Shown here one piece after another: positions 889 through 14,622 of a stretch of 20,438 nt of DNA. This DNA is from a virus, in the IMG/VR virus record IMGVR_UViG_3300037071_001215, positions 1 to 20,438 of that record. One strand, given 5' to 3'. A model generated the notes under the pieces. The model was not told the DNA's origin and did not search any database. It saw nothing but the letters and a program-made list of their open reading frames with translations. Numbering within the stretch: the stretch's first letter is position 1; each line of letters begins with the position of its first letter. The position numbers were made by a program, and so were the translations under genes.

Positions 889-1271
889 CCGCAGATGCCC
901 CAAGAACGCCGCTCAAGCCCTCTACAGCCGTTTCTCTCAGGAAAACGGGTAGAGTGGCACCCCGCGTCAATCCGGCCGAATCTAAACCGATTCAGCAGAC
1001 TGAGCGGGCGTTCCAGGCATCTGTCATCCGGTACGCCGAGCTGATGGGCTGGACGTGCCACCACCACTACGACTCGCGGCGGTCATCCCCTGGTCTGCCG
1101 GACTTGCTACTCGTCCGCCGACCCCGCGTCGTCTGGGCAGAACTCAAGAGCGAACGCGGCCGGCTCACTCCAGACCAGCGCGCCTGGATCGAAGAACTGC
1201 GAGCCTGCGGCCAGGAAGTGTTTCTTTGGAGACCTTCAGACTGGGAGAAAATCGAACGTGTGCTTAGGTGA
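885..1271 (+). CDS. VRR-NUC domain nuclease
   Basis: The ATG at 885 is chosen because it overlaps the preceding stop (ATGA). Upstream in-frame starts would run through the preceding gene. The product is 128 aa. Residues 40-128 form a VRR-NUC (PD-(D/E)xK superfamily) nuclease: the conserved PGLPDLLL (Asp73), WAELKSE (Glu86, Lys88) and TPDQ (95-98) motifs are all present, ending in the family-typical WRPSDW segment. In phages this stand-alone nuclease usually lies among replication or recombination genes and is thought to cut branched DNA. The 3' end meets the antisense HNH gene, whose stop codon (1264-1266) lies inside this gene. A second, diverged copy of the last 18 or so codons lies beyond the HNH gene at 1897-1956, so the present C-terminus may have been acquired together with the HNH gene. 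Confidence 0.88.
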   Translation: MTADAPRTPLKPSTAVSLRKTGRVAPRVNPAESKPIQQTERAFQASVIRYAELMGWTCHHHYDSRRSSPGLPDLLLVRRPRVVWAELKSERGRLTPDQRAWIEELRACGQEVFLWRPSDWEKIERVLR

Positions 1272-1893
1272 CGTGTTTCCAGATGGCGCCTCTCTTGATG
1301 GCTCCAATAAGGCTGATGCTGACACCGAAGCGGTCTGCCAGGATCTTTTGGGTCTCGCCGGCCGCGCGGATCGTGCGCACGTCGTCTTCGGTAAGCTGCG
1401 CGCGGGGGTGGATCTCTCCGATCATCGGGCCAACGTGGGCGCCGGCTGCCCTTCGAGCGCGTTCCTTCCGCTCCTTCCCCTGAGCATTACGGCACGTTCG
1501 GCACCGGCGGGCTCCGGTCTTGGCGTCAATAATCAGGTTCTCTCCGCTGAGAGGATGACCGCCCGGGCACTCGGTGATAGCAGCCTTGGCCCTGCGAACG
1601 TTCTCGGCGTGGGTAACGGGCTCAAGGTGCCGCTCGTAGTTGACGCAATGACGGATTCGACAGAGATGGTCCAGGTCCGGCGTTTCCCTGGGCACTGGGC
1701 CGACGCCGAGCTGGTACGCGATGACGTGGACCTTCTGCATCCTGTGGCCCCGCTTCAAGTGAGCGTAGCCGTCTTCCCTGAGCGGGCCAGTCCATACCCA
1801 GCACGGGCCGAGGTCTGGACGGTGCGGCGGGATGGGGCCATTCAGGTCGACTCTGGCCCAGAAGAGGGGGTCGCGCGAGATGTCGATGCTCAT
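1264..1893 (-). CDS. HNH endonuclease 1 (HNH_3-type with C-terminal helix-turn-helix), antisense, probably mobile
   Basis: The product is 209 aa from the ATG at 1893; an in-frame ATG at 1908 would add five residues. The N-terminal block contains FWARVDLNGPIP and LGPCWVWTG (residues 11-36). The core DHLCRIRHC...HLEPVTHAENVRR (75-101) is the beta-beta-alpha-metal HNH_3 fold. A structural zinc site, CPGGH then CRTC (109-134), follows, and a C-terminal helix-turn-helix (about 170-205) ends in IWKHV. Such free-standing HNH proteins are typical phage homing-type endonucleases. One oddity is that the usual CVNPDHL is CVNYERHL, one residue longer between Asn and His. It is opposite to all neighbours, overlaps the end of the VRR-NUC gene by a few bases, and its start abuts a leftover VRR-NUC C-terminus. 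It is a clear paralogue of the HNH gene at 11625-12221. Confidence 0.9.
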   Translation of the reverse strand: MSIDISRDPLFWARVDLNGPIPPHRPDLGPCWVWTGPLREDGYAHLKRGHRMQKVHVIAYQLGVGPVPRETPDLDHLCRIRHCVNYERHLEPVTHAENVRRAKAAITECPGGHPLSGENLIIDAKTGARRCRTCRNAQGKERKERARRAAGAHVGPMIGEIHPRAQLTEDDVRTIRAAGETQKILADRFGVSISLIGAIKRGAIWKHVT

Positions 1894-1896
1894 GCG

Positions 1897-1956
1897 GGAG
1901 TATACCATTTCTGGCGCCCGGCCATGTGGCAGGACGTCGAGAGAATCCTGCGATGA
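1897..1956 (+). pseudogene. remnant of a VRR-NUC gene 3' end, displaced by the HNH insertion
   Basis: In the + frame that stops at 1954-1956, the last codons read VYHFWRPAMW then QDVERILR. The intact VRR-NUC upstream ends FLWRPSDW then EKIERVLR. Over 16 aligned residues, 8 are identical (W, R, P, W, E, R, L, R) and 4 more are conservative. The stop of the remnant overlaps the ATG of the next gene (ATGA at 1953), exactly the coupling seen elsewhere in this genome. This looks like the original end of the VRR-NUC gene, separated from its body by the antisense HNH gene. Confidence 0.68.
1899..1907 (-). promoter_or_regulatory. extended -10 promoter of HNH endonuclease 1
   Basis: Reading the minus strand, TGGTATACT matches an extended -10 element (TGnTATAAT) at 8 of 8 defined positions except the fifth base of the hexamer. 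The HNH start codon at 1893 lies only five bases beyond the hexamer, so the transcript would be leaderless or nearly so, in line with the absence of a Shine-Dalgarno sequence. No convincing -35 is seen. The paralogue HNH2 has the same element (TGGTATAAT). Confidence 0.5.
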
Positions 1957-2579
1957 AGACCCAGGAATACGCGCCAGACCGGCGCGGCTACCGAAACCCC
2001 GCCCATACGCAGGGGATGGCGGGGCTCTGCAATTGCAGTACCTGCTATCAGCGGCGCTGGTGGACCCCAGAGCGGCGGTCGGCGCGAGCTGCGGCGATGC
2101 GCCAGCAGTGGGCGAGCGGCCGGCGGGATGGTCAGCCGCACTCGAACGTCCGGCGCGCGTCACACTGGACGCCGGAGCAGGACGCCTCCTTGCGATCGCT
2201 TGCCGGGAAGCACGATCTGCCGGAACTTGCGGCGCTGATGAGCGCACTGTTCCACGTACCACGTACCACCCAGGCGATTCACCGACGGTGTCAGCGGCTC
2301 GGTATCTCCAGGCTACAACTTCGCCCGTACACTACGAGCGAAGTGGCGCGGATGTTGGGGATGGGCATAACAACCTTCCGCACCCGCATCGTCCTCCCCG
2401 GCCTCCTCCAGTTCGTATGGTGGCGCGGCGGCAGCGCCGGGACGCGCGTCTACCGTCGTGCCGATCTTGAGCGATTCATACGCCTGCACCCCGGTAGCTA
2501 CGACCCAGAGCGTATCCGAGACTCGCAACTTTCAGTGCTGGCGCGCGCGGTGACACGCGGTCGACTGCGGACTGGCTGA
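1953..2579 (+). CDS. DNA-binding protein with SANT/Myb-like and MerR-like helix-turn-helix domains
   Basis: The ATG at 1953 overlaps the stop of the VRR-NUC remnant, so this start is preferred over the in-frame ATG at 1926. The product is 208 aa. A Cys cluster (C26, C28, C31; CNCSTC) is near the N-terminus. A SANT/Myb-like or recombinase-like helical domain begins at HWTPEQDASL (71-119). A second helix-turn-helix of the MerR/excisionase type follows (YTTSEVARML through YRRADLERFI, about 126-176), with a beta-wing between. The tail is basic. Two DNA-binding domains and no catalytic motif point to a regulator or DNA-architecture protein, and its place just before the terminase genes would suit a late-gene regulator. 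That role is inferred, not shown. Confidence 0.75.
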   Translation: MKTQEYAPDRRGYRNPAHTQGMAGLCNCSTCYQRRWWTPERRSARAAAMRQQWASGRRDGQPHSNVRRASHWTPEQDASLRSLAGKHDLPELAALMSALFHVPRTTQAIHRRCQRLGISRLQLRPYTTSEVARMLGMGITTFRTRIVLPGLLQFVWWRGGSAGTRVYRRADLERFIRLHPGSYDPERIRDSQLSVLARAVTRGRLRTG

Positions 2580-2982: not shown

Positions 2983-4274
2983 TCATTGCTGACGAGCTGG
3001 TCGCCCTTTACCAGGCGCTCGACCTCGCTGAGGCCGAGCGCCATCAGGCCGACCCCGACCTGTCCCTGCTCTCGCCGCTCCAGTGGGCCGAGCAGAACGC
3101 CACCATCGTCCTCCCGACCGAAGGCCGCATGCCATTCAGCCCCTATCCGTACCAGCGCGAACTGCTCGACGACCGATCCCTGCGCCGGGTCGTCCTCAAG
3201 GCCAGGCAGACCGGGATGAGCAACGTCATCGCCATCGAAGCCCTCCACCTCGCCATCACCCGCCCAGATTCGACCATCCTGTTTGTCTCCAGGAACCAGC
3301 AGGCAGCCCGGGTGCTGATCACCTACGCCCAACACACGCTGAGTGGGTTACGCCAGATCCCCGAGCTGACCAACGAGACGCAGAGCGAACTGGCATTCCC
3401 GAACGGCTCGCGCATCATCAGCCTGCCAGCCACAGCCAGCACCGGACGAGGCTTCGCTGCCACCCGCGTCTACCTCGATGAGTTCGCCTTCTGCGCCTAC
3501 GATGGGCTGATCTATGAAAGCATCGTCGGTACGGTCTCGACGGGTGGTGACCTGACCGTCCTCTCTACTGCCAACGGCCGTAACAACGTCTTCTTCCGTC
3601 TCTGGTCCGGGGTCGAGGGCGGGCACTGGTCGAAGCACCGTATTCACTGGTCGGACTGCCCGCGCTACACCGAGGCCTGGGCCGAGCGCACCCGGGCCGG
3701 CATGACGAGACAAGCGTTTGCGCAGGAATACGACCTCGACTTCCTGACCTCGGGCGACGCGGTCTTCGATCCTGCCGACCTGGCCCGGTGCGGCGATGAC
3801 TGGTCGGATCACACCGCGCACTGCACGCAGTTCGTGACGGCCTGGGACATCGGCCGCAGGCAGGATCACACGGTCGGGCTCACGCTCGGGCTCCGGGATG
3901 ATGCCTGGCACGTCGTCGCCTTCGAGCGGTTCCTAGCCCCGTACCCCGTCATTCAGAGCAGGATCGAGCAACGCGCCCGTACCTACCCTGGCCGGCATGT
4001 CGTGGAGTCCAACGGCGTCGGCGATCCTGTCATCGAGAACCTGAGTTGCCGCGTCGAACCGTTCACCACGACCGCGAAGACCAAAGTACAGGCGATCCAG
4101 GCGTTGCAGCTGCTGATCCAGCAGCGACGCTTCAAGCATGCCGAGCCACAGCTCGCGAACGAACTGAGCGTCTACGAATGGAACGATGCCGGCATCGTCC
4201 AGGACAGCGTGATGGCCGCGTCGATTGCCGCGTTCACGGTCCAGAAGCCGGCGAGAGCCGCATACGTGTACTGA
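2979..4274 (+). CDS. terL: terminase large subunit
   Basis: The product is 431 aa from a GTG overlapping the previous stop. The ATPase domain has a Walker A variant (KARQTGMS, residues 74-81), Walker B (VYLDE, 164-168) and the coupling motif STANG (196-200). The RNase H-like nuclease domain has AWDIG (Asp290), VESNGVGDPV (Glu343) and a final DSVMAA segment (Asp409), so all expected acidic residues are present. The protein packages phage DNA into the prohead with ATP and cuts concatemers. Its length is normal for the family. The N-terminal QWAEQN and PYPYQRELL patterns are typical adenine-recognition sequences. The gene is followed after 14 bases by the portal gene. Confidence 0.95.
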   Translation: MIIADELVALYQALDLAEAERHQADPDLSLLSPLQWAEQNATIVLPTEGRMPFSPYPYQRELLDDRSLRRVVLKARQTGMSNVIAIEALHLAITRPDSTILFVSRNQQAARVLITYAQHTLSGLRQIPELTNETQSELAFPNGSRIISLPATASTGRGFAATRVYLDEFAFCAYDGLIYESIVGTVSTGGDLTVLSTANGRNNVFFRLWSGVEGGHWSKHRIHWSDCPRYTEAWAERTRAGMTRQAFAQEYDLDFLTSGDAVFDPADLARCGDDWSDHTAHCTQFVTAWDIGRRQDHTVGLTLGLRDDAWHVVAFERFLAPYPVIQSRIEQRARTYPGRHVVESNGVGDPVIENLSCRVEPFTTTAKTKVQAIQALQLLIQQRRFKHAEPQLANELSVYEWNDAGIVQDSVMAASIAAFTVQKPARAAYVY

Positions 4275-4288
4275 GAGGGGGTGATCCT

Positions 4289-6325
4289 GTGGGCATCTTC
4301 GATTGGCTCGGGCCGCTGAACGCCGGGAGTAATAAATCGCGCGGCTGGGGCGACTTGCCGTCATCAGTAATAAAATTGCCCGAGACGAAAGCATCCTGGA
4401 CGATTGACGATTACCGCGCTGTCATCGTCTCGCCGCTGGTGCACGGCCCGGGTGCTACCGATCTCCTGGCCGGCGCCTACGGGGCTGCTGCCAACAGCGC
4501 GGTGTTCGCCTGCCTGACGGCCATCGCCTCAGCCTACGTCGAGGCGCCGCTCACGGTCTACCGACAGATGAGTCCGAAGGACCGAGAGCCACAGTTCGAC
4601 AGCCCGCTTCAATCATTGCTCGACTACCCGAATCCGGCGCTCGATATGCTGGAAATCATGGGCTGGGTGCAGTGCGCCAAGCACGTCGACGGGAACGCCT
4701 ACCTGCGGAAGATGCGCGCCGGCAACGACCTGACCGGCAACGTCGTCGAGCTGTGGCCGATCAGCCCGAGCAGGCTTGAGCCACGGACGATCCGCGATTC
4801 TGGCGACTTCATCAGCTTCTATCGCTACTACATCCGACCGGGCGTCTACGAGGACATCCCGACCGAAAACATCATTCACTTTCGGATGGGCCTCGACGAC
4901 AAGGATCATCGGCTCGGCATCTCCCCGTTGAAGCGACTGGTCCGCGAGGTTAGCAGCGACGACCAGGCCACCAGATACGCCGACCGCCTACTGGCGAACC
5001 TCGCCATTAATGGCCTGAGCATGGAGTTCGACAAGGACACCGGCCCGATTGATCGGGCGACCGCCGACGAGATGAAATCCAGGATTCAATCGGCCTACTC
5101 GGGCGACAACGTCGGCGCCGTCTCGGTGCTCAGCCCTGGCGCCAAGCTCGTGCAGCATGGATTCTCGCCTGAGCAGATGGACCTCAAGGTCTTGCACCGG
5201 GTGCCAGAGGAGCGTATCTCTGCCGTGTTGCAGGTACCTGCCATCGTCGCCGGTCTCGGCGCTGGCCTTGACCGCTCGACGTTCGCCAACTACGAAGAGG
5301 CGAATCAGTCATTTATCGAGAAAACGATCCTGTCTCTCTACCGTGCCGACGACAAGAAGCTAACCCATAGCCTCGCGGTCGACTTCACATCGGACCGCAA
5401 GATCAGCATTGCCCACGACATCACTCAGATGCGCGCCTTGCAGGACGACGAGGACAAGAAGGCGACGCGGCTGGCTGCTTACGTCGCTGCCGGCATCCTC
5501 GATGTCAACGAGGCGCGTGCCGAGATCGGCCGGGAGCCTCGCGCTCCGTCGCCCCCGGCAGACGCAGCGGCTCCGGCGCTTCCGTCCTCCCCTCCGGAAG
5601 CGCGGAGCCGGCCGCGCATCCTCACCCTGCCGAATCGGGAACTCAAGAGTCCGGACGACCTGCCCGGCCTGTTCGGGCGCCTCAAGGACAACCTGGAGCC
5701 CGACTGGTTCTCGGAGATCGAATCGTTCCTGACCGCACAACTCAGGAGGGTCAATGCTCGACTCCGTGCTGGCGGCGATACGGCGGAGGGACTGGTCGCC
5801 GAGGGCGAGGCACAACTGCTCGGTGAGACACTTACCCCTCTCCAGACCGCCCTGTTGTCCGACGTGTCACGCCTTGTGGTCGCGGAGCTGGCGGTGGCTT
5901 TCGATCTGGACGACGCGGCATCTCGCGCATACCTGCGAGATGCCGGTTCCAACATTGTTGGCATCACCGAGACGACGCGCGACGCGGTCAGAGCCGCCCT
6001 CATCGAGGGCCAGCAGGCCGGCGAGGGAATCCCCCAACTCGCCGCCCGCCTCCAGCAACTCCCCGCCTTCAACCGCGCTCGCGCCATCACCGTTAGTCGA
6101 ACTGAACTCGGGCATGCAGCGAATGTCGCAGCAGTTGCGAACTACCGCGCGAGTGGTGTCGTTGTTGGCGTCCGGGTCTTCGACGGCGACTACGACGCCG
6201 AGTGCATCGCGATGAACGGCCGGACGTTCACCCTCGACCAGACACCGCCGACCTTGCAGCACCCTCGTTGCCTGCGGGCGTTCGCGCCGATCACCGACGT
6301 CAGCGAGTTAGTGAGGTCAGCGTGA
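4289..6325 (+). CDS. portal protein fused to a MuF (SPP1 gp7-like) head morphogenesis domain
   Basis: The GTG at 4289 has GAGAGGGG about 8 bases upstream and gives GIFDWLG, a common portal N-terminus; the open frame further upstream overlaps the terminase gene. The product is 678 aa. Residues 1 to about 430 are an HK97-type portal: VFACLTAIASAYVEAPLTVY, PNPALDMLE, then GNAYL, GISPLKRL and the late segment with VPAIVAG and NYEEAN. A Pro/Ala-rich linker follows. The C-terminal about 220 residues are MuF-like, with the RTELGHAANVAAV motif (about 604-616) and HPRCLRAF near the end. The portal forms the DNA gate at one capsid vertex, and MuF proteins are minor head proteins that are usually separate. 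No stop or start splits the two parts. Confidence 0.93.
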   Translation: MGIFDWLGPLNAGSNKSRGWGDLPSSVIKLPETKASWTIDDYRAVIVSPLVHGPGATDLLAGAYGAAANSAVFACLTAIASAYVEAPLTVYRQMSPKDREPQFDSPLQSLLDYPNPALDMLEIMGWVQCAKHVDGNAYLRKMRAGNDLTGNVVELWPISPSRLEPRTIRDSGDFISFYRYYIRPGVYEDIPTENIIHFRMGLDDKDHRLGISPLKRLVREVSSDDQATRYADRLLANLAINGLSMEFDKDTGPIDRATADEMKSRIQSAYSGDNVGAVSVLSPGAKLVQHGFSPEQMDLKVLHRVPEERISAVLQVPAIVAGLGAGLDRSTFANYEEANQSFIEKTILSLYRADDKKLTHSLAVDFTSDRKISIAHDITQMRALQDDEDKKATRLAAYVAAGILDVNEARAEIGREPRAPSPPADAAAPALPSSPPEARSRPRILTLPNRELKSPDDLPGLFGRLKDNLEPDWFSEIESFLTAQLRRVNARLRAGGDTAEGLVAEGEAQLLGETLTPLQTALLSDVSRLVVAELAVAFDLDDAASRAYLRDAGSNIVGITETTRDAVRAALIEGQQAGEGIPQLAARLQQLPAFNRARAITVSRTELGHAANVAAVANYRASGVVVGVRVFDGDYDAECIAMNGRTFTLDQTPPTLQHPRCLRAFAPITDVSELVRSA

Positions 6326-6327
6326 GG

Positions 6328-6360
6328 GCTCGGTAGGTGGCTGGTACCCACCTACCGAGC
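6328..6360 (+). terminator. 13-bp perfect stem-loop between the portal and the secreted-protein gene
   Basis: The arms at 6328-6340 and 6348-6360 (GCTCGGTAGGTGG and its complement) pair perfectly over 13 bp around a 7-base loop, three bases after the portal stop. No T-run follows, so a classical Rho-independent terminator is not supported. It may be a weak terminator, an mRNA processing or stabilising hairpin, or an end of an inserted cassette. Confidence 0.5.
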
Positions 6361-6393
6361 AGAGCATCACGGAGAACCCTGGAAGGAAACCCC

Positions 6394-8340
6394 ATGACGG
6401 CCAGGAGAATAGCCTGCAACGCCCTGCTGGTGCTGTGCATTGTGTGGCTGGCGCTGCTCCCGAAGGGGACAGCGGCGCAGAGCGGCGCTATCTCGTGTAT
6501 CCCCGTCATGACCGTGGACGGCGGTCGCGTGACCTTCGCCTGCCCCACCGAGACAGCAACGTCAACACCCGTAGCCTCTACGGCGACGGCCACCAACACC
6601 AGCACGCTCACCCCGTCGCCGTCGCCATTGCCGACGAATACGGCGGTATCGTCCCCGACCGATACCGCAACTCCTGAGCCCACCGATACCCCGGCGCCGG
6701 CTACCCCGACCGACACGCCAGAGCCGACGAATACGCCGGTGCCACCAACCAGCACCCCACTCCCCACGGCGACGGGTGTACCGCCGACCTCCACCCCCGC
6801 ACCTCAAGCGCTGAGCGTCCTGCTCCGTCGTCATGATTACGCCTGGACGGAGCTTCAGCGCGGCATTGCTGATGGCCCCGGTGGCCCGACGATGTACCGC
6901 CCACGACAGTTCGTCAACGGCCTCCAGATCACGGACGATAGCTGGGGCACGTTCACGGTATCGAACGCTGGTCCGTACGCTGGCTGGGACATCTGGAAGG
7001 GCGCGAACAGGAACAACTGGCGTAGCCCGTCCACCAACCAGCAGTGGGCACGCTTCACCCTTCAGCGCCCGGCCACGGTCGGCCTGGTGTGGAGAGGCAA
7101 GGGCAGCAACCCGCCGGCATGGCTCACACAGCAGGGCTGGACGGAGGGTGCACAGATTGCGACCACGGGCGCCTCTGGCAACCAGTCTGGCTCACACCGG
7201 GTCTTCACGAAGCAGATGCCGGTAGGCGAGTTCTGGGTGCCGTGGGTCGGCTATCAGGCAGCCGCCGACAACAACACATGGTGGGTGCTGTTCGGAGAGA
7301 CGAACGGGACAGCTAGCCCGGCCCCATTCGTCGGCGGCGAGCGTGAGGTACCCGTCCCCAACCAGACCTGCCCGCAGTGGGTCCACGATCAGTACGTGAC
7401 GCTCGGGCCGGACGGACGCGCCTACGCCACATGGCACCGCGTGATCGACCCCGTCTACTGGTGCAGCTTCACGCATGAGCACGGCGACGACCCGGCATTA
7501 CTTGGAGTAGCGGACTTCCACCCGACGTTCCACTACGCCGCGACGGCTGACGGCGCCTCGGAGTTCCATCAAGGCTTCAAGGTGCTGGTCTGGGATGACG
7601 GCACCAACAACTACACCCACCTGGACGTGATGCACTTCGGCACCAGTAACACCAACAGCGTGTGCAACCGCTTCCACGAGATGCAGCACGCCGGCGCCCG
7701 GAACGGCGAACTGCTCTACTACTACCAGTACCAGGGTGATTTCGGGGTCGCCTCGCAGAACAACACCAACGACGTCTTCTACCTTGTCTCGAAGCCGACC
7801 TGTCCACAGGGCTCGGGCCCGGCCCCCGGTTCTACCGGCCTACGTCAGATGCCGGTGCAGTCGTCCGACATCAACGGCCCCTCACCCAACCCCGTCTTCT
7901 ACGAGCCGTGGCGTGAGGACGAACGTGCTATCTGCTCGCTGGCGGGGATGTGCATTCAGGACTTCCACATTAACAACCCCGACCCGATGGTGATCTGCCG
8001 TGATCGGCAGTGTGCCGACCCGCCGATCACGACGGGGAAGCCTGGAGCACAGCGGTTCAGCAACCTCCAGCCGGGCAGCCAGATTCGAGCGCCCGCCGAC
8101 ACCCCCGCAGACGGCTATCTGTGGACGGACGCACGAGCCACTCAGCGTGTTGCTGTTGGCACGCTCGGCGCTGTCCGGCAGTTCGTCAAGCAAGGGCTGG
8201 TGCTGGCCGTCCGCGAGTTCGTCAATACCGAAGAACTCACGACCGATACCGTCTGGGGGGAGGAGAAGTCAAGGCCGATCCTCGGCAGCCTGCACGGCGC
8301 CGTCCGTGACCCCGAGAAGACCGTCCGCTCGCCCAACTAG
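6394..8340 (+). CDS. secreted protein of unknown function with signal peptide and Thr-Pro-rich linker (moron-like)
   Basis: The ATG at 6394 has GGAAGG 7 bases upstream and starts a clear signal peptide: basic MTARR, hydrophobic core at residues 9-22, and likely cleavage after TAA near residue 28. The product is 648 aa. Residues 51-137 are a low-complexity Thr/Pro/Ser/Asn linker with repeated DTP, NTP and STP units, a style frequent in Chloroflexota extracellular proteins. Two further regions follow: about 145-310, Trp/Gly-rich and probably a beta-sandwich, and about 325-560, with many His and Cys (HEHGDDP at 361-367, H376, H380, H392, H409, H414, and HEMQH at 428-432). I do not recognise the family. 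HEMQH formally fits the zinc-protease pattern HExxH, but nothing else confirms a protease. It follows the portal gene and precedes virion-type genes. It could modify the host surface or be displayed on particles. Confidence 0.8.
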   Translation: MTARRIACNALLVLCIVWLALLPKGTAAQSGAISCIPVMTVDGGRVTFACPTETATSTPVASTATATNTSTLTPSPSPLPTNTAVSSPTDTATPEPTDTPAPATPTDTPEPTNTPVPPTSTPLPTATGVPPTSTPAPQALSVLLRRHDYAWTELQRGIADGPGGPTMYRPRQFVNGLQITDDSWGTFTVSNAGPYAGWDIWKGANRNNWRSPSTNQQWARFTLQRPATVGLVWRGKGSNPPAWLTQQGWTEGAQIATTGASGNQSGSHRVFTKQMPVGEFWVPWVGYQAAADNNTWWVLFGETNGTASPAPFVGGEREVPVPNQTCPQWVHDQYVTLGPDGRAYATWHRVIDPVYWCSFTHEHGDDPALLGVADFHPTFHYAATADGASEFHQGFKVLVWDDGTNNYTHLDVMHFGTSNTNSVCNRFHEMQHAGARNGELLYYYQYQGDFGVASQNNTNDVFYLVSKPTCPQGSGPAPGSTGLRQMPVQSSDINGPSPNPVFYEPWREDERAICSLAGMCIQDFHINNPDPMVICRDRQCADPPITTGKPGAQRFSNLQPGSQIRAPADTPADGYLWTDARATQRVAVGTLGAVRQFVKQGLVLAVREFVNTEELTTDTVWGEEKSRPILGSLHGAVRDPEKTVRSPN

Positions 8341-8351
8341 GGAGGTAGATC

Positions 8352-8771
8352 ATGGCCCTCGACCCGAGCATTACTACCGCTGCCGCGAACGCGGCCTGTG
8401 ACGCCGTCGTCGACCTGATCGACGCCGGCACCCCGCCCGGCCTGCTCAAGATCTACGCCGGCACCGTTCCCACCAATGCCAACGCCGCGCTGGGCGGCGC
8501 GACCCTGCTCGGTACGCTGACGTTCAGTAACCCTGCCTTCGGTGCGGCCTCGGCGGGCGTGGCAACGGCCTCGGCGATCACGTCCGACACCAGCGCCGAC
8601 GCGACCGGCACGGCGACATTCTTCAGGATCACCAACGCCGCCGGTACGGTCATCATCCAGGGCGAGGTCGGGACATCTGGCGCCGACCTCAACCTGTCGT
8701 CGGTCGCCATCACCATCGGCGGCACGATCGCCGTGTCCTCGCTGACGTACACCCAGCAAGGTCTAGCGTAG
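8352..8771 (+). CDS. phage structural-type protein of a conserved uncharacterised family
   Basis: The ATG at 8352 has GGAGG 6 bases upstream. The product is 139 aa. It has the N-terminal NAACDAVVDLIDAG motif, then LKIYAGTVPTNA, TLTFSNPAFGAAS and TSDTSADATGTATFFRI. These match a small all-beta protein family that I recall from many phage structural operons, usually next to lectin-like and Ig-like proteins. Its exact function is not established; a virion decoration or tail-associated role is likely. The stop overlaps the next GTG (TAGTG at 8769-8773). Confidence 0.75.
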   Translation: MALDPSITTAAANAACDAVVDLIDAGTPPGLLKIYAGTVPTNANAALGGATLLGTLTFSNPAFGAASAGVATASAITSDTSADATGTATFFRITNAAGTVIIQGEVGTSGADLNLSSVAITIGGTIAVSSLTYTQQGLA

Positions 8772-9977: not shown

Positions 9978-10706
9978 GTGCCCTACGTCTTTCGTCGCCC
10001 GTTCGACTTCGCGGTGTACGCCGCTCGTTGGCTCGCGCCGTCTGCGCCGCCGCCGGGGGTTACTGGCACCGGGGCGGTCGCGATTGCAGGCCCGGTGCTG
10101 GCGGCAACTGGCACCTTCACGACAACCGGCAGCGGTGCGGTCGCGATCTCCCCTCCGGCGCTCGCAGGTGCCGGCGCCTTCACGACGACGGGATCGGGCG
10201 CGCTGACGATTGGTGCCCCAGTCGTCGCCGGCGCCGGCACCTTCACGACGACGGGCACTGGCGCCATCACCATCGGCGGGCCAGCGGTCAGCGGTTCGGG
10301 CTCGGCGTTCGACCCCGGCACCGGCAGCGGCGCTATCAGCATCGGGCCGCCCCAGGTAGCAGGTGCGGGCAGTTTCGCCACCACCGGGGCAGGAGCGGTC
10401 AGTATCAGCCCGCCGGTCCTCGACGGCTCGGGCACGTTCGTCGGGCCGGCGAGTGGGACGGGCGTCATCACGATTCCAACGCCCGTTCTGGCCGGGGTGG
10501 GAACGCTGATCTACGTCGGCAGTGGAGCCATCACGATCCCTGGCCCGATTGTGCTCGGCTATGAGGCGGTGCCGGCTATTGCGACGAGAGCAGCAGCCGC
10601 CGACTCGGCGTACGGTGGAGCTGTCGGCAGCGATGCCGCCTACACTGGCGCTGGCGCTGGAGACCTGGCGCTCGTCGGCGCCACAGCAAGTGATTCGGAG
10701 GTCTGA
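9978..10706 (+). CDS. glycine-rich repeat protein with seven to eight 21-22-residue repeats, probable virion fibre or decoration protein
   Basis: The GTG at 9978 starts PYVFRRPFDFAVYAARW, an N-terminal motif I recall from phage structural proteins. From residue about 30 to 194 there are seven full and one partial repeats of 21-22 residues, with consensus G-(S/T)-G-A-hydrophobic-x-I-x-x-P-x-(L/V)-x-G-x-G-(T/S)-F-x-T-T. Such short Gly-rich repeats often build a beta-solenoid or fibrous shaft. The C-terminal 45 residues are Ala/Gly-rich and end DSEV. The coding DNA carries matching imperfect tandem repeats, so copy number may vary among relatives. The stop overlaps the next ATG (TGATG at 10704). 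No catalytic motif is seen. Confidence 0.75.
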   Translation: MPYVFRRPFDFAVYAARWLAPSAPPPGVTGTGAVAIAGPVLAATGTFTTTGSGAVAISPPALAGAGAFTTTGSGALTIGAPVVAGAGTFTTTGTGAITIGGPAVSGSGSAFDPGTGSGAISIGPPQVAGAGSFATTGAGAVSISPPVLDGSGTFVGPASGTGVITIPTPVLAGVGTLIYVGSGAITIPGPIVLGYEAVPAIATRAAAADSAYGGAVGSDAAYTGAGAGDLALVGATASDSEV

Positions 10707-10993
10707 TGTCAGCTTACCAGCGGGGTCAGTCGGTCAGGCTCTACTGCTCGTTTGCCGATGCCAACGCAGTCGCGGCCAACCCGACGACCGTTACGTGTGC
10801 GGTCGAAGAGCCGGACGGGACAGAGACGACCTACACCACGCCGGTGATCACCAACCCGTCAACCGGCACCTTTCAGTTGATCGTGGTGCCCGACCAGAGC
10901 GGGATGTACTCCTACCGCTGGGAAGGCACCACCGGCACCAGCGTTGCCGTCGACGAGGATCAGTTCCACGTGCTCGGGTCGGCCTTCCCGTGA
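10706..10993 (+). CDS. small Ig-like phage protein
   Basis: The ATG at 10706 overlaps the previous stop (TGATG) with GGAGG about 6 bases upstream. The product is 95 aa. The pattern is a short beta-sandwich: YQRGQSVRLYCSF, then TVTCAVEEPDGTETTYTTPV, GTFQLIVVPDQSGMYSYRWEG and DQFHVLGS. It resembles small Ig-like or carboxypeptidase-regulatory-like domains in phage head and tail accessory proteins. The stop overlaps the GTG of the first glycosyltransferase (GTGA at 10990). It probably acts as a particle-surface protein; this is inferred. Confidence 0.72.
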   Translation: MSAYQRGQSVRLYCSFADANAVAANPTTVTCAVEEPDGTETTYTTPVITNPSTGTFQLIVVPDQSGMYSYRWEGTTGTSVAVDEDQFHVLGSAFP

Positions 10994-11628
10994 GGCCGCT
11001 GGTGTCCGTGTGTACCCCGACCTGGCAGCGGCCGGAGCTGCTGGCCGAGACGATCCGCCATCTTCGGGAGCAGGACTATCCGAATATCGAGCATGTCGTG
11101 ATCTCGGATGGGCCGGACGATGGGCTGCTGGAGCGGATGCGTTGGCTTAGGAGCCGACCCGTCAAGAAAGCCGGTGATTGGTCCGCTCGCTCAATCCAGC
11201 TCGGCCGCAACTGGTCGGGGCTGATGCCGTCGTCGTTCGGGATCGCCCCGCTGCTGGTCGGCTACCTGATGGCTCGCGGCGAGTACGTTGCCAATCTCTC
11301 CGACGATGACAGGATGAGCCCAGACTACATCAGCCGCCTAGTTACGTTGCTCGAAGAGACGGGAGCGGACTTCGCCTACAGCAAGGCGCGGTTCTACTGG
11401 TACGACCAGCGGCCGGAGGACGGCTACGACATTGGGACCGACCCGCCCCAGCATGGGCAGATCACGAGCATGGTGGCGCGGACATCCTGCTTCTGGCGGT
11501 TCGGGATGCCGCGCTGGTCTTCCCACCCGGTTGATTGGTCCCTGGTGCAGGATTGGATCTCGGCCGGTGCGAAGTGGGCATTCCTGCCGGAGGTGCTGTT
11601 CTGGCACCGAGCGGACCAGAGAGGCTAG
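10990..11628 (+). CDS. glycosyltransferase family 2 (GT-A), copy 1
   Basis: The GTG at 10990 overlaps the previous stop. The product is 212 aa. The N-terminal nucleotide-sugar fold begins VSVCTPTWQRPELL, followed by NIEHVVISDGPDDG and the metal/sugar-nucleotide motif SDDD (DDD at 105-107). A C-terminal acceptor-side region ends in FLPEVLFWHRADQ. Family 2 enzymes transfer a sugar from a nucleotide donor; there is no membrane segment, so it is cytoplasmic. It is a paralogue of the gene at 13969-14622, sharing ISDGPD, the GTDPPxxGQIT-type segment, ADFAYSxA and the C-terminal PEhL...H(R/K)AD ending. Its TAG stop is palindromically shared with the TAG of the antisense HNH2 gene (CTAG at 11625-11628), so its 3' end may have been replaced at that insertion. 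Confidence 0.88.
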   Translation: MRPLVSVCTPTWQRPELLAETIRHLREQDYPNIEHVVISDGPDDGLLERMRWLRSRPVKKAGDWSARSIQLGRNWSGLMPSSFGIAPLLVGYLMARGEYVANLSDDDRMSPDYISRLVTLLEETGADFAYSKARFYWYDQRPEDGYDIGTDPPQHGQITSMVARTSCFWRFGMPRWSSHPVDWSLVQDWISAGAKWAFLPEVLFWHRADQRG

Positions 11629-12221
11629 ACGTGCTTCCAGTTCTTACGCTGAATCACCGCATACAGCGTGCTGGTATTGATGCCCATCTGGTGCGCCAGC
11701 GCCTTGACCGTGATGTTGCCCTCAGCGTGACGGCGTCGCGCCTCGATCACGATGGCTTCGGTCAGTTTCGCTACGGGCGTGGACTCGCCCCGTCGAACGA
11801 GGTCAGGTCGCCGCACCATGTAATGTCGCTCGCCGCGCGCGCGACTATCGGGCCGTGTTCTCGAAGAGTGCTGGTCACCCTTAGCCGAGCGCCCCTTGGC
11901 GACCATGTCGGCCTGGTTCTGAGCAATCGTCCCAGCGAAGAGATGGTCAGGCCGGACGCAGGCGATGTAGCCACCGTCGCAGCGGTGCAGAACGCAAGGC
12001 TTGTCGGCTGGCAGTTCGCCGTAGGTCAGGATGTAGGCGACGACGCTGGCGACGTACGTCCGACTGCGAAAGTGAACCTGCCCCCGTCCGTCAGGATGAC
12101 GCGATCCTGTCCAGATCCAACAGGGGCCAAGCTCGGGGCAGTGGGCCGGGATCGGGCCGTTCCGATCAACCTTGGCCCAGAACGTCGTTACGCGCTGCTC
12201 GGGCGTATACTTGGCTGGCAT
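11625..12221 (-). CDS. HNH endonuclease 2 with C-terminal helix-turn-helix, antisense, probably mobile
   Basis: The product is 198 aa from the ATG at 12221, with a strong Shine-Dalgarno (GAGGGGG, about 7 bases upstream on the minus strand). It shares with HNH1 the N-terminal FWAKVDRNGPIP and LGPCWIWTG (14-39) and the C-terminal helix-turn-helix ending NWKHV. The HNH core is CVLHRCDGG...ACVRPDHLFAGT...QNQADM (76-106), ending in an AKGR segment. The usual Asn of CVNPDHL is Arg90 here, a possible loss or change of activity. It is opposite to all flanking genes and sits at the 3' end of a glycosyltransferase, with the two stop codons overlapping. Such HNH genes are typical phage homing-type elements. 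The HNH1 paralogue sits in an equivalent position at another gene's 3' end. Confidence 0.9.
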   Translation of the reverse strand: MPAKYTPEQRVTTFWAKVDRNGPIPAHCPELGPCWIWTGSRHPDGRGQVHFRSRTYVASVVAYILTYGELPADKPCVLHRCDGGYIACVRPDHLFAGTIAQNQADMVAKGRSAKGDQHSSRTRPDSRARGERHYMVRRPDLVRRGESTPVAKLTEAIVIEARRRHAEGNITVKALAHQMGINTSTLYAVIQRKNWKHV

Positions 12222-12615: not shown

Positions 12616-12839
12616 TGGCGAACGACAAGCTGTTTCTTGTTTGTCGTGGATGCCGGGCTGTCCTGGGCATCTACAAGTATTTCGGCCACGCGGACCCCGC
12701 TGCGTACATCTCGGGCGGCGAGCTTGGCGCATTCATCGCTGAGCACCTGTATCACACCGGGCATCACCCGGACGGATTCCATTTGCCAGAGGAGGCCTTC
12801 GAGATAACGACCGATCATATCCTGATGAGGGAATCGTGA
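12615..12839 (+). CDS. small zinc-binding-type hypothetical protein, 74 aa
   Basis: The GTG at 12615 overlaps the preceding TAG; the stop overlaps the next gene's GTG (GTGA at 12836). The product is 74 aa with LVCRGC (C10, C13) and a His cluster (H44, H47, H50, H51) in the segment FIAEHLYHTGHHPDGFHL. A CxxC plus histidines suggests a small metal site. A similar small protein type (CRGC...EL..F...H...H) seems familiar from phages of high-GC hosts, without known function. It lies directly before a glycosyltransferase, but no role can be assigned. Confidence 0.65.
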   Translation: MANDKLFLVCRGCRAVLGIYKYFGHADPAAYISGGELGAFIAEHLYHTGHHPDGFHLPEEAFEITTDHILMRES

Positions 12840-13426
12840 ATGCTGACCTGACGATCGTCATCCCAACGCAGGGCCGGGAGACGCTGCCGACCTGTCTGGC
12901 GTCGATGCGCCCGCTTCGGCAGGGCGACGTGCCGGCTCAGATCCTCGTTGTGGCTGATACCCACTCGCCGCTCCTGATGGACGTGCAAGCCCTCTGCCAG
13001 GAAGAGCGGGTGACCTACCTTGAACTCGACGCCGGCTGGCACGACTGGGGCTACCCGCAGCTCCAGTATGGCTACGACCTGGCGCTCGGTGACTACGTCA
13101 TGAACATTGGCGACGACGACGTCTACGAGCCCGGCGCCTTCGAGGTCATCCGAAACGCCATTGACGAGCTGCCGTCTACCCGTCCGCTGCTGTTCCGCGC
13201 GCTGATGCATCCGAGCGTCAGCCGCCCGTGCGGTGACCCGCTCCTGCTCTGGCGGTTGCGCGGCCAGATCGTGCGCGGGACGGTCACCGGTCAGAACCTC
13301 GTCGCCCCGAACGTGCCCGCGAAGCTCGGTACCTGGGTTGACGACTTCATCCACCTGGAGCAGACCGTCAACGCCTGGGACGGCCTGGTCGAGTGGCGAG
13401 ACGAGGTTATCGCGAAATGCTACTAG
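12836..13426 (+). CDS. glycosyltransferase family 2 (GT-A), copy 2
   Basis: The GTG at 12836 overlaps the preceding stop. The product is 196 aa. It has the GT-A start LTIVIPTQGRETLPTCLASM, AQILVVADTHS, and the metal/nucleotide motif GDDDVY (DDD at 93-95). A late VDDFIHLEQTVNAWDG segment would contact the acceptor. It is shorter than typical family 2 enzymes and more distant from copies 1 and 3 than they are from each other. No membrane helix is visible, so it is probably cytoplasmic. Donor and acceptor are unknown. The end overlaps the next frame by 10 bases. Confidence 0.85.
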   Translation: MNADLTIVIPTQGRETLPTCLASMRPLRQGDVPAQILVVADTHSPLLMDVQALCQEERVTYLELDAGWHDWGYPQLQYGYDLALGDYVMNIGDDDVYEPGAFEVIRNAIDELPSTRPLLFRALMHPSVSRPCGDPLLLWRLRGQIVRGTVTGQNLVAPNVPAKLGTWVDDFIHLEQTVNAWDGLVEWRDEVIAKCY

Positions 13427-13848: not shown

Positions 13849-13976
13849 TCTGGGGTTCGTTCCTCTGCTGGCTCGGGCGCCACCGTCCCTACACGTACTA
13901 CCAGCATGGAGACGTCCGCTTCCTGGGATGTCAGCGCGACGGCTGTTTCTGGATACGAGAGGTTAGCCGTGACTGA
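13845..13976 (+). CDS. tiny Cys-containing hypothetical protein, 43 aa
   Basis: The GTG at 13845 overlaps the previous stop, and the frame ends 8 bases into the next glycosyltransferase gene. Residues include C8, C29 and C34, with a GRHRPYTYY segment and GCQRDGCFWIRE. It resembles small zinc-knuckle-like phage proteins in which a first Cys, a His and a CxxxxC end bind a metal. It fills the gap between two genes precisely. No function is known. Confidence 0.5.
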   Translation: MIWGSFLCWLGRHRPYTYYQHGDVRFLGCQRDGCFWIREVSRD

Positions 13977-14622
13977 GCGTAAGTTAGTTTCAGTGGTGAC
14001 CGGAACGTATCAGCGCCTTGAACTCTTGCTCGGCGCCATCGAGAATGTGCGCGCTCAGACCTACCGGCCGCTTGAGCATGTCATTGTCAGCGACGGCCCG
14101 GACCATACCCTGGACTTCCTCCTCAACGAGGAAGACGAACACCGCTGGTCTGATGACGGCACCGAAGACTCGCGGTGGGTGCCGATCCGCTATGCCGAGC
14201 TGGGTTTCTGGTCGTCGGGCCTGCTCAGCAACAGCATCAGCGCGGCGCCGTTCATGGTCGCGCAGTTATTGGCCCGTGGCGACTATCAGATCACCATGTC
14301 GGACGACGAGCGGTTCCTCGACACCGATGCGATTACGAAGCTCGTGGACAGCCTCGAAGCGTATGAAGCGGACTTCGCCTACTCTCGTGCCGAGATCACG
14401 TTCGCTTGGGATAACCCGCCGTATGGCATTGGGATCGACCCGCCGGCGAGTGGGCAGATCACGCAGTTTCTCTACAAGCGGGAGATGCTCGACAAGGGCA
14501 TGCTGTTTCGGACGCACATCGGGAATGCGACCGACTGGGACGCGGTCAGCCGCACGATGGCGAGCGGCGGCCGGTGGGCCTACGTCCCCGAAATCCTGGT
14601 GACCCACAAGGCGGATAAGTGA
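13969..14622 (+). CDS. glycosyltransferase family 2 (GT-A), copy 3
   Basis: The GTG at 13969 is chosen because GAGG lies about 6 bases upstream and homology with copy 1 begins there (KLVSVVTGTYQRLELL); an ATG further upstream at 13906 lies inside the small preceding gene. The product is 217 aa. Motifs are HVIVSDGPDH (38-46) and the metal/nucleotide motif MSDDERF (SDDE at 111-114). The C-terminal half shares ADFAYSRAE, GIDPPASGQIT and WAYVPEILVTHKAD with copy 1. The two are paralogues that may act on different donors or acceptors. The stop overlaps the next ATG (TGATG at 14620). Confidence 0.87.
   Translation: MTERKLVSVVTGTYQRLELLLGAIENVRAQTYRPLEHVIVSDGPDHTLDFLLNEEDEHRWSDDGTEDSRWVPIRYAELGFWSSGLLSNSISAAPFMVAQLLARGDYQITMSDDERFLDTDAITKLVDSLEAYEADFAYSRAEITFAWDNPPYGIGIDPPASGQITQFLYKREMLDKGMLFRTHIGNATDWDAVSRTMASGGRWAYVPEILVTHKADK

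What the first reader, a model, noticed from the sequence alone, without database searches (positions are those of the whole stretch)
6394..8340. Chloroflexota-style secreted protein embedded in a phage structural operon
A 648-residue protein with a clear signal peptide, an 87-residue Thr/Pro/Asn-rich linker and two unknown extracellular-type domains sits directly after the portal gene, where phages rarely encode a secreted protein. It has its own ribosome binding site and is preceded by a strong hairpin. It could be a host-derived moron that changes the cell surface, excludes other phages or degrades extracellular material, or it may be displayed on the virion.
Basis: partly seen in the sequence, partly recalled or inferred. 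Interest (0 to 1): 0.65.

Follow-up and report, generated by a model that had tools for sequence, protein, structure and literature searches.

The report
Phage-borne exported HEHG-family protein
A virus of bacteria carries, among the genes for its own particle, a gene for a protein built to be exported from the cell; it belongs to a widespread but unnamed family of secreted bacterial proteins that phages have picked up at least four times, and whose job is still unknown.

Summary
The 648-aa ORF at 6394-8340 has a signal peptide, an 88-residue Thr/Pro-rich linker and two domains, and lies 68 nt after a portal-MuF fusion gene. The linker is not Asn-rich (3% N). Both domains are real homologues of secreted bacterial proteins: held-out HMMs give E 1.2e-28 (residues 157-308) and 1.7e-61 (316-606). 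The C-terminal "HEHG" domain has no Pfam, NCBIfam, PHROG or PDB match. It has ten positions invariant in 81/81 sequences (H348, C357, H361, H363, K396, H428, Q596 among them) and a C-terminal Asn in 77/78. A 93.5-pLDDT model of one relative has no significant PDB fold match. Cellular members occur in Acidimicrobiia, Chloroflexota, Thermaceae, Gemmatimonadota and Streptomyces, some fused to SLH, CBM2, GHL15 or cohesin/dockerin. Eight more viral contigs carry it, all with signal-peptide-like starts and among virion or lysis genes, often near a phrog_3758 gene. The tree forces at least four host/phage changes. Two related phages share flanks and the gene's 5' end but carry HEHG domains from different clades. 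Best reading: a host-derived exported protein made with the late genes, probably an enzyme acting on envelope or extracellular polysaccharide. Family and origin are well supported; the activity is inference.

The parts
6328..6360 (+). perfect 13-bp inverted repeat in the 68-nt portal/secreted-gene intergenic gap; function unknown
   Evidence: no T-run, not found upstream of the other viral homologues
6381..6388 (+). purine-rich ribosome binding site (GGAAGGAA)
   Evidence: sequence
6394..6477 (+). Sec-type signal peptide, residues 1-28 (predicted cut TAA|Q)
   Evidence: hydropathy; the eight other viral homologues also begin with signal-peptide-like sequence. No trained predictor was available.
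6478..6543 (+). short stub (residues 29-50) with two Cys
   Evidence: similar-looking stubs precede the linker in L007, L022, L095, L097; inspected, not scored
6544..6807 (+). Thr/Pro-rich linker, residues 51-138
6862..7317 (+). N-domain (residues 157-308), beta-rich; homologous to the domain in front of HEHG in Acidimicrobiia, Meiothermus granaticius and Calidithermus
   Evidence: held-out HMM E 1.2e-28; alignment A6 with 15 invariant columns; model
7339..8337 (+). HEHG domain (residues 316-648), unnamed family
   Evidence: held-out HMM E 1.7e-61 over 316-606; alignments A3 and A4; no Pfam, NCBIfam, PHROG or PDB match
7474..7485 (+). HEHG motif, residues 361-364 (H361, H363, G364 in 81/81; E362 in 80/81)
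8335..8337 (+). C-terminal Asn648; Asn is the last residue of 77 of 78 family members that end with the domain
8352..8771 (+). phrog_3758 virion structural gene, recurrent neighbour of HEHG genes
   Evidence: phrog_3758 E 4e-38; homologues beside HEHG in L102, L103, L005 and three genes away in L105; a similar gene at the same place in L114, by inspection
4262..6325 (+). portal protein with MuF-like C-terminus, upstream neighbour

Best explanation
The gene encodes a host-derived protein made with the phage late (structural) genes and exported through the Sec pathway of the infected cell. The signal peptide is removed and the Thr/Pro linker works as a spacer between an N-terminal stub and two folded domains: a beta-rich N-domain and the HEHG domain. 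The HEHG domain is most likely an enzyme with a His-rich (possibly metal) site drawn from H348, H361, E362, H363, H414, H428 and K396, with W506, R554, Q596 and perhaps the C-terminal Asn around it. It probably acts on cell-envelope or extracellular polysaccharide, which would help progeny leave or re-enter a coated cell. Shown here: homology, host origin, repeated capture, location among late genes, and different HEHG domains at the same place in related phages. Inferred: signal cleavage, late expression, export. Inferred with low confidence: enzymatic nature and polysaccharide substrate.
For: Both domains match cellular secreted proteins. Viral members fall in several clades, with at least four host/phage label changes forced by supported branches. 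All nine viral genes keep a signal-peptide-like start and end in Asn. They lie in virion or lysis clusters: L005 terL-portal-phrog_3758-HEHG-...-MuF-capsid; L102 and L103 HEHG-phrog_3758-...-terL-portal; L007 directly after an NlpC/P60 tail protein; L105 after a gene with weak Rz-spanin/holin-like matches. Enzyme-like conservation: ten positions invariant in 81/81 members although members are only about 25-30% identical to the window. Links to carbohydrate: fusions to CBM2 (L080, 8e-25), GHL15 (L092, 6e-23) and cohesin/dockerin (L024), SLH anchors (L018), a GH11 xylanase gene about 1.6 kb away in one Streptomyces. Exchange of the variable half: L003 and L105 share flanks (78-89% nt) and the gene's 5' end (81% over 88 nt) but not the HEHG half, and their HEHG domains fall in different supported clades.
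Against: No catalytic residue, metal or substrate is demonstrated. No fold match: PDB Foldseek has nothing at E<=0.001, best a catalase-related protein at E 0.018, probability 0.25, TM about 0.2. Strict His/Cys conservation could be structural (metal or disulfide). The cohesin/dockerin, CBM and SLH fusions fit cell-surface display or binding as well as catalysis, and each was seen in few members. No SignalP-type prediction, expression data or proteomics. The L003/L105 difference extends into the adjoining LamG-like gene, so it may be replacement of a longer stretch rather than of one domain.
Confidence: 0.4

Rival explanations
1. Surface modifier or exclusion factor: the protein is exported and stays on the producing cell, binding or masking receptors or glycans so that other phages (or released progeny) do not adsorb; the HEHG domain binds rather than cuts.
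For: Signal peptide, linker and SLH-bearing homologues point to cell-surface placement. Exported exclusion lipoproteins are described in other phages, e.g. the mEpimmI coliphages (PMC11893012). Several carrier phages also carry glycosyltransferases nearby (window, L006, L104).
Against: No lipobox, anchor or SLH seen in the window protein. Location in the late cluster suggests production when the cell is about to lyse, late for exclusion. No sign of separate expression (no sigma-70-like promoter).
Confidence: 0.22
2. Virion-associated protein: exported or released, then attached to the particle (or displayed with the neighbouring LamG-like and phrog_3758 proteins) and used on the way into the next cell.
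For: Recurrent neighbourhood with phrog_3758, LamG-like/phrog_10356 and Ig-like genes. Half-gene exchange resembles receptor-binding modules.
Against: All nine viral copies keep a signal-peptide-like start, and cellular homologues look like free or wall-bound secreted proteins. Tailed phages assemble in the cytoplasm (general knowledge). No PHROG virion family matches it.
Confidence: 0.15
3. Nutritional or auxiliary gene: the secreted protein feeds or protects the infected or lysogenised host, with no role in the phage cycle itself.
For: Cellular members look like extracellular polymer-directed or surface proteins. At least one carrier has an integrase (L007).
Against: Placement in the late structural cluster rather than at prophage ends. 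No integrase seen in the window, which may be a fragment.
Confidence: 0.18
4. Artefact: cellular DNA misjoined to a phage contig, or a decaying insert.
For: Single contig, no reads available; a hairpin sits at the possible joint.
Against: Same gene family beside the same neighbour gene in independent contigs. The frame is intact, codon-position GC is like the neighbours and the family C-terminus is kept.
Confidence: 0.02

Closest known systems
Unnamed HEHG-domain secreted proteins of Acidimicrobiia, Thermaceae, Chloroflexota, Gemmatimonadota, Streptomyces/Glycomyces (loci L011-L099)
   Same: Same HEHG domain, invariant residues and C-terminal Asn; signal peptide; in Acidimicrobiia, Meiothermus granaticius and Calidithermus also the same N-domain
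   Different: Encoded in cellular genomes, some with SLH, CBM2, GHL15 or cohesin/dockerin modules the window lacks; only about 30% identical to the window protein
HEHG proteins of other viral contigs (L003, L005, L006, L007, L102-L105)
   Same: Signal-peptide-like start, HEHG domain, C-terminal Asn, virion or lysis gene neighbourhood
   Different: No N-domain was noticed in them (not searched by profile); L102-L105 and L003 have a dockerin-like segment; most HEHG domains are from other clades
Phage exported cargo and exclusion proteins (lambda Lom and Bor, recalled; mEpimmI exclusion lipoproteins, PMC11893012)
   Same: Exported product of a phage gene that can alter the host surface
   Different: No sequence relation shown; those are membrane proteins or lipoproteins, this looks like a soluble multidomain protein
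Tetraselmis virus 1 protein A0A2P0VNA9 (predicted structure)
   Same: Only significant viral structure match, E 4e-8, 505 aligned columns
   Different: 12% identity, TM about 0.2, algal giant virus, uncharacterised
Catalase-related proteins (PDB 3e4w and catalases)
   Same: Recur among the top Foldseek hits
   Different: All non-significant (best E 0.018, probability 0.25, TM about 0.2); treated as a lead only

Membership tests
HEHG-domain family (defined here) | C-x-F-x-HEHG-x-x-P signature and invariant H348, K396, H428, Q596 | tested here: met
HEHG-domain family (defined here) | Domain runs to the protein end with a C-terminal Asn | tested here: met
   77/78 members, window ends RSPN
Sec-exported protein | n-h-c signal peptide at the start codon | tested here: met
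   hydropathy and sequence; no trained predictor available
Phage moron (strict sense) | Own promoter and terminator, expressed in the lysogen | tested here: inconclusive
   no sigma-70-like promoter, no terminator on the gene's strand; host promoters may differ and there are no transcripts
Phage moron (strict sense) | Foreign (cellular) origin relative to neighbouring phage genes | tested here: met
   tree with cellular and viral members interleaved
Known virion protein families (PHROGs) | Match to a head, tail or connector profile | tested here: not met
   0 families at E<=1
Known glycoside hydrolase, lyase or carbohydrate-binding family | Match of the window protein to a Pfam or NCBIfam model | tested here: not met
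   only fusion partners in relatives match
Catalase superfamily | Significant fold match | tested here: not met
   no PDB hit at E<=0.001

The most novel reading that the evidence does not exclude
The HEHG domain is a new family of extracellular enzymes with an unseen fold and an active site that uses the protein's own C-terminal Asn. Phages of Chloroflexota-like hosts keep a dedicated late-operon slot for it and exchange the HEHG half in and out, as they do receptor-binding modules.
Probability: 0.25. Interest if true: 0.78.

Novelty: new variant of a known kind. Interest (0 to 1): 0.58.

Why it matters
Phages carrying host-derived secreted proteins are known, but here a widespread family with no name in the libraries searched, with enzyme-like invariant residues and no structural match, is found in at least nine phage contigs, taken up at least four times, in a recurring place among the virion and lysis genes. 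That gives a defined target for structure and activity work and suggests how phages of Chloroflexota and similar bacteria may deal with the cell surface.

Tried and rejected
Direct searches with the single protein found nothing (viral contigs) or chance hits only (phages and plasmids). The first PDB phmmer hits covered the low-complexity linker and its edge. NCBIfam MXAN_5187, E 0.18, covered signal peptide and linker. Loci L008, L009 and L010 matched the DNA pattern but their proteins are unrelated. Misassembly was considered and set aside because of shared neighbours in independent contigs. A terminator role for the hairpin is not supported (no T-run), and the hairpin is absent upstream of the other viral genes. 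Catalase membership rejected. A prophage origin of the cellular copies was tested: of 22 genomes, three have portal genes (PF04860); where contig numbers could be compared they lie on another contig than the HEHG gene (G005: C9 against C41). Cellular gene neighbourhoods gave no consistent operon. A literature search for 'HEHG' gave only unrelated uses. L105:6872-8092, which looks lysin-like by eye, has no Pfam or PHROG match.

Full report
1. Observation. The window is the whole of a 20,438-base virus record (G000). The ORF at 6394-8340 is real: ATG start, plausible ribosome binding site, 648 codons, codon-position GC broadly like its neighbours. Residues 1-28 have signal-peptide features, residues 51-138 are a Thr/Pro-rich linker (T 32%, P 26%, N only 3%). 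It follows a portal gene with a MuF-like end by 68 nt, and its stop is 11 nt before a phrog_3758 virion gene. The hairpin at 6328-6360 is a perfect 13-bp inverted repeat, with no T-run.

2. What the domains are. Pfam, NCBIfam, PHROGs, PDB sequences, phage and plasmid collections gave nothing useful for the protein. A motif search (C-x-[FY]-x-HEHG-x-D-P) in viral contigs found relatives. An alignment of these found 131 relatives in the GTDB species genomes, 80 kept as loci, from Acidimicrobiia, Chloroflexota, Meiothermus/Calidithermus, Gemmatimonadota, Streptomyces, Glycomyces and others. HMMs built without the window hit it at E 1.2e-28 for residues 157-308 and E 1.7e-61 for 316-606, with no hit to 5000 shuffled sequences.

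3. The HEHG family. In 81 members H348, C357, H361, H363, G364, P367, K396, H428, G451 and Q596 are invariant, E362, G394, H414 and W506 are in 80 and R554 in 79. Of 78 members that end near the domain, 77 end in Asn; the Anaerolineae members with extra C-terminal domains do not. Accessory modules: SLH (L018) and CBM2 (L080), GHL15 (L092), cohesin and dockerin (L024). A model of the window's two domains has mean pLDDT 75.8 and pTM 0.76; a model of the L035 domain has pLDDT 93.5 and pTM 0.92. Neither has a PDB match at E<=0.001. The only significant viral structure match is an uncharacterised Tetraselmis virus 1 protein.

4. Distribution. With the HEHG profile, 8 of 400 Chloroflexota genomes matched at 1e-5; only the best few candidates per genome were scored, so this is a lower bound. 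With the two-domain profile, 4 of 198 genomes of the class of L011 matched. Cellular copies are not beside portal genes where this could be compared.

5. Viral members. Besides the window: L003, L005, L006 (=L004, L100), L007 (=L002, L101), L102, L103, L104, L105. All begin with a signal-peptide-like sequence and end in Asn. Neighbourhoods: L005 terL-portal-phrog_3758-HEHG-phrog_14065-small gene-MuF-capsid. L102 and L103 HEHG followed directly by a phrog_3758-like gene (41% and 35% identical to the window's), then terL-portal (terL and portal confirmed in L102). L003 and L105 HEHG-LamG-like-'DNTTLNTG'-phrog_3758 (in L003 the last by inspection). L007 directly after an NlpC/P60 tail protein. 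L006 and L104 between glycosyltransferases and tail-like genes that are homologous between the two. In Mycobacterium phage Charlie the related gene lies between minor tail genes and the endolysin.

6. Origin and exchange. In the careful tree the viral label needs 5 changes and at least 4 are forced by supported branches. The window pairs with L006 (91/92) inside a clade (97/92) with Acidimicrobiia, Meiothermus granaticius and Calidithermus. L102-L105 are sister to Chloroflexota proteins (100/100); L003 and L005 group with Chloroflexota L096 (100/98); L007 with Meiothermus and G330 (96/93). Several of these rows are long branches, so their exact places are unsure. L003 and L105 come from related phages: DNA flanks 78-89% identical and next structural gene 88% at protein level. 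Their HEHG genes share the 5' part (81% over 88 nt; 34% over 91 residues) but no DNA similarity over the HEHG half, and the two HEHG domains fall in different supported clades. The simplest reading is replacement of the HEHG half (with the LamG-like gene, which also differs) by recombination. L006 and L104 have the same slot with HEHG proteins from different clades.

7. Mechanism. Shown: homology, host origin, repeated uptake, location with late genes, kept signal-peptide-like start. Inferred: Sec export, late expression. Inferred with low confidence: enzymatic activity on envelope or extracellular polysaccharide, from the enzyme-like invariant residues and from fusions to carbohydrate-related modules. 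Exclusion or surface modification, auxiliary host benefit and virion attachment are the main rivals and are not excluded.

8. Host. The portal's best chromosomal relatives found here are in Chloroflexota (31-41% identity, 4 of 400 genomes) against 34% in one of 198 genomes of the Acidimicrobiia class. This suggests but does not prove a Chloroflexota host.

Noticed in passing
window 1264-2262 (-) and 11628-12221 (-): Two minus-strand ORFs that run against the structural genes are both homologous to an L006 minus-strand ORF (24%, 7e-10 and 33.5%, 5e-24); they look like HNH-type homing endonucleases by eye, not tested by profile.
   Followed up: partly
window 10.5-16.1 kb: Glycosyltransferase genes (12836-13426 and 13906-14622 match GT2; 10522-11628 is 26% similar to an L104 glycosyltransferase) lie between the structural genes and the capsid protease.
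   Followed up: partly
L003 / L105 (with L114): Related phages with shared flanks carry HEHG domains from different clades behind a shared 5' gene start; the LamG-like gene next to it also differs.
   Followed up: yes
L092:1459-3900 (-): Chloroflexota protein fusing a GHL15 glycosidase-like domain (6e-23) to the HEHG domain, with a second HEHG gene (L099) about 3 kb away on the same contig.
   Followed up: partly
HEHG family C-terminus: The last residue is Asn in 77 of 78 members that end with the domain, across phyla; no explanation found.
   Followed up: partly
L102-L105 and L003 HEHG proteins, N-terminal part: Dockerin-like segment (D-x-N-x-DG-x-x-DI-x-D) between signal peptide and linker in phage-encoded proteins; recognised by eye, Pfam did not call it in L105 or L003.
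   Followed up: no
BFVD A0A2P0VNA9 (Tetraselmis virus 1): Giant algal virus protein with a significant structure match to the window model (E 4e-8), hinting that the family may reach eukaryotes or their viruses.
   Followed up: no
L111 (G577, genome of the class of L011): HEHG relative with one in-frame TGA in the matched stretch.
   Followed up: no
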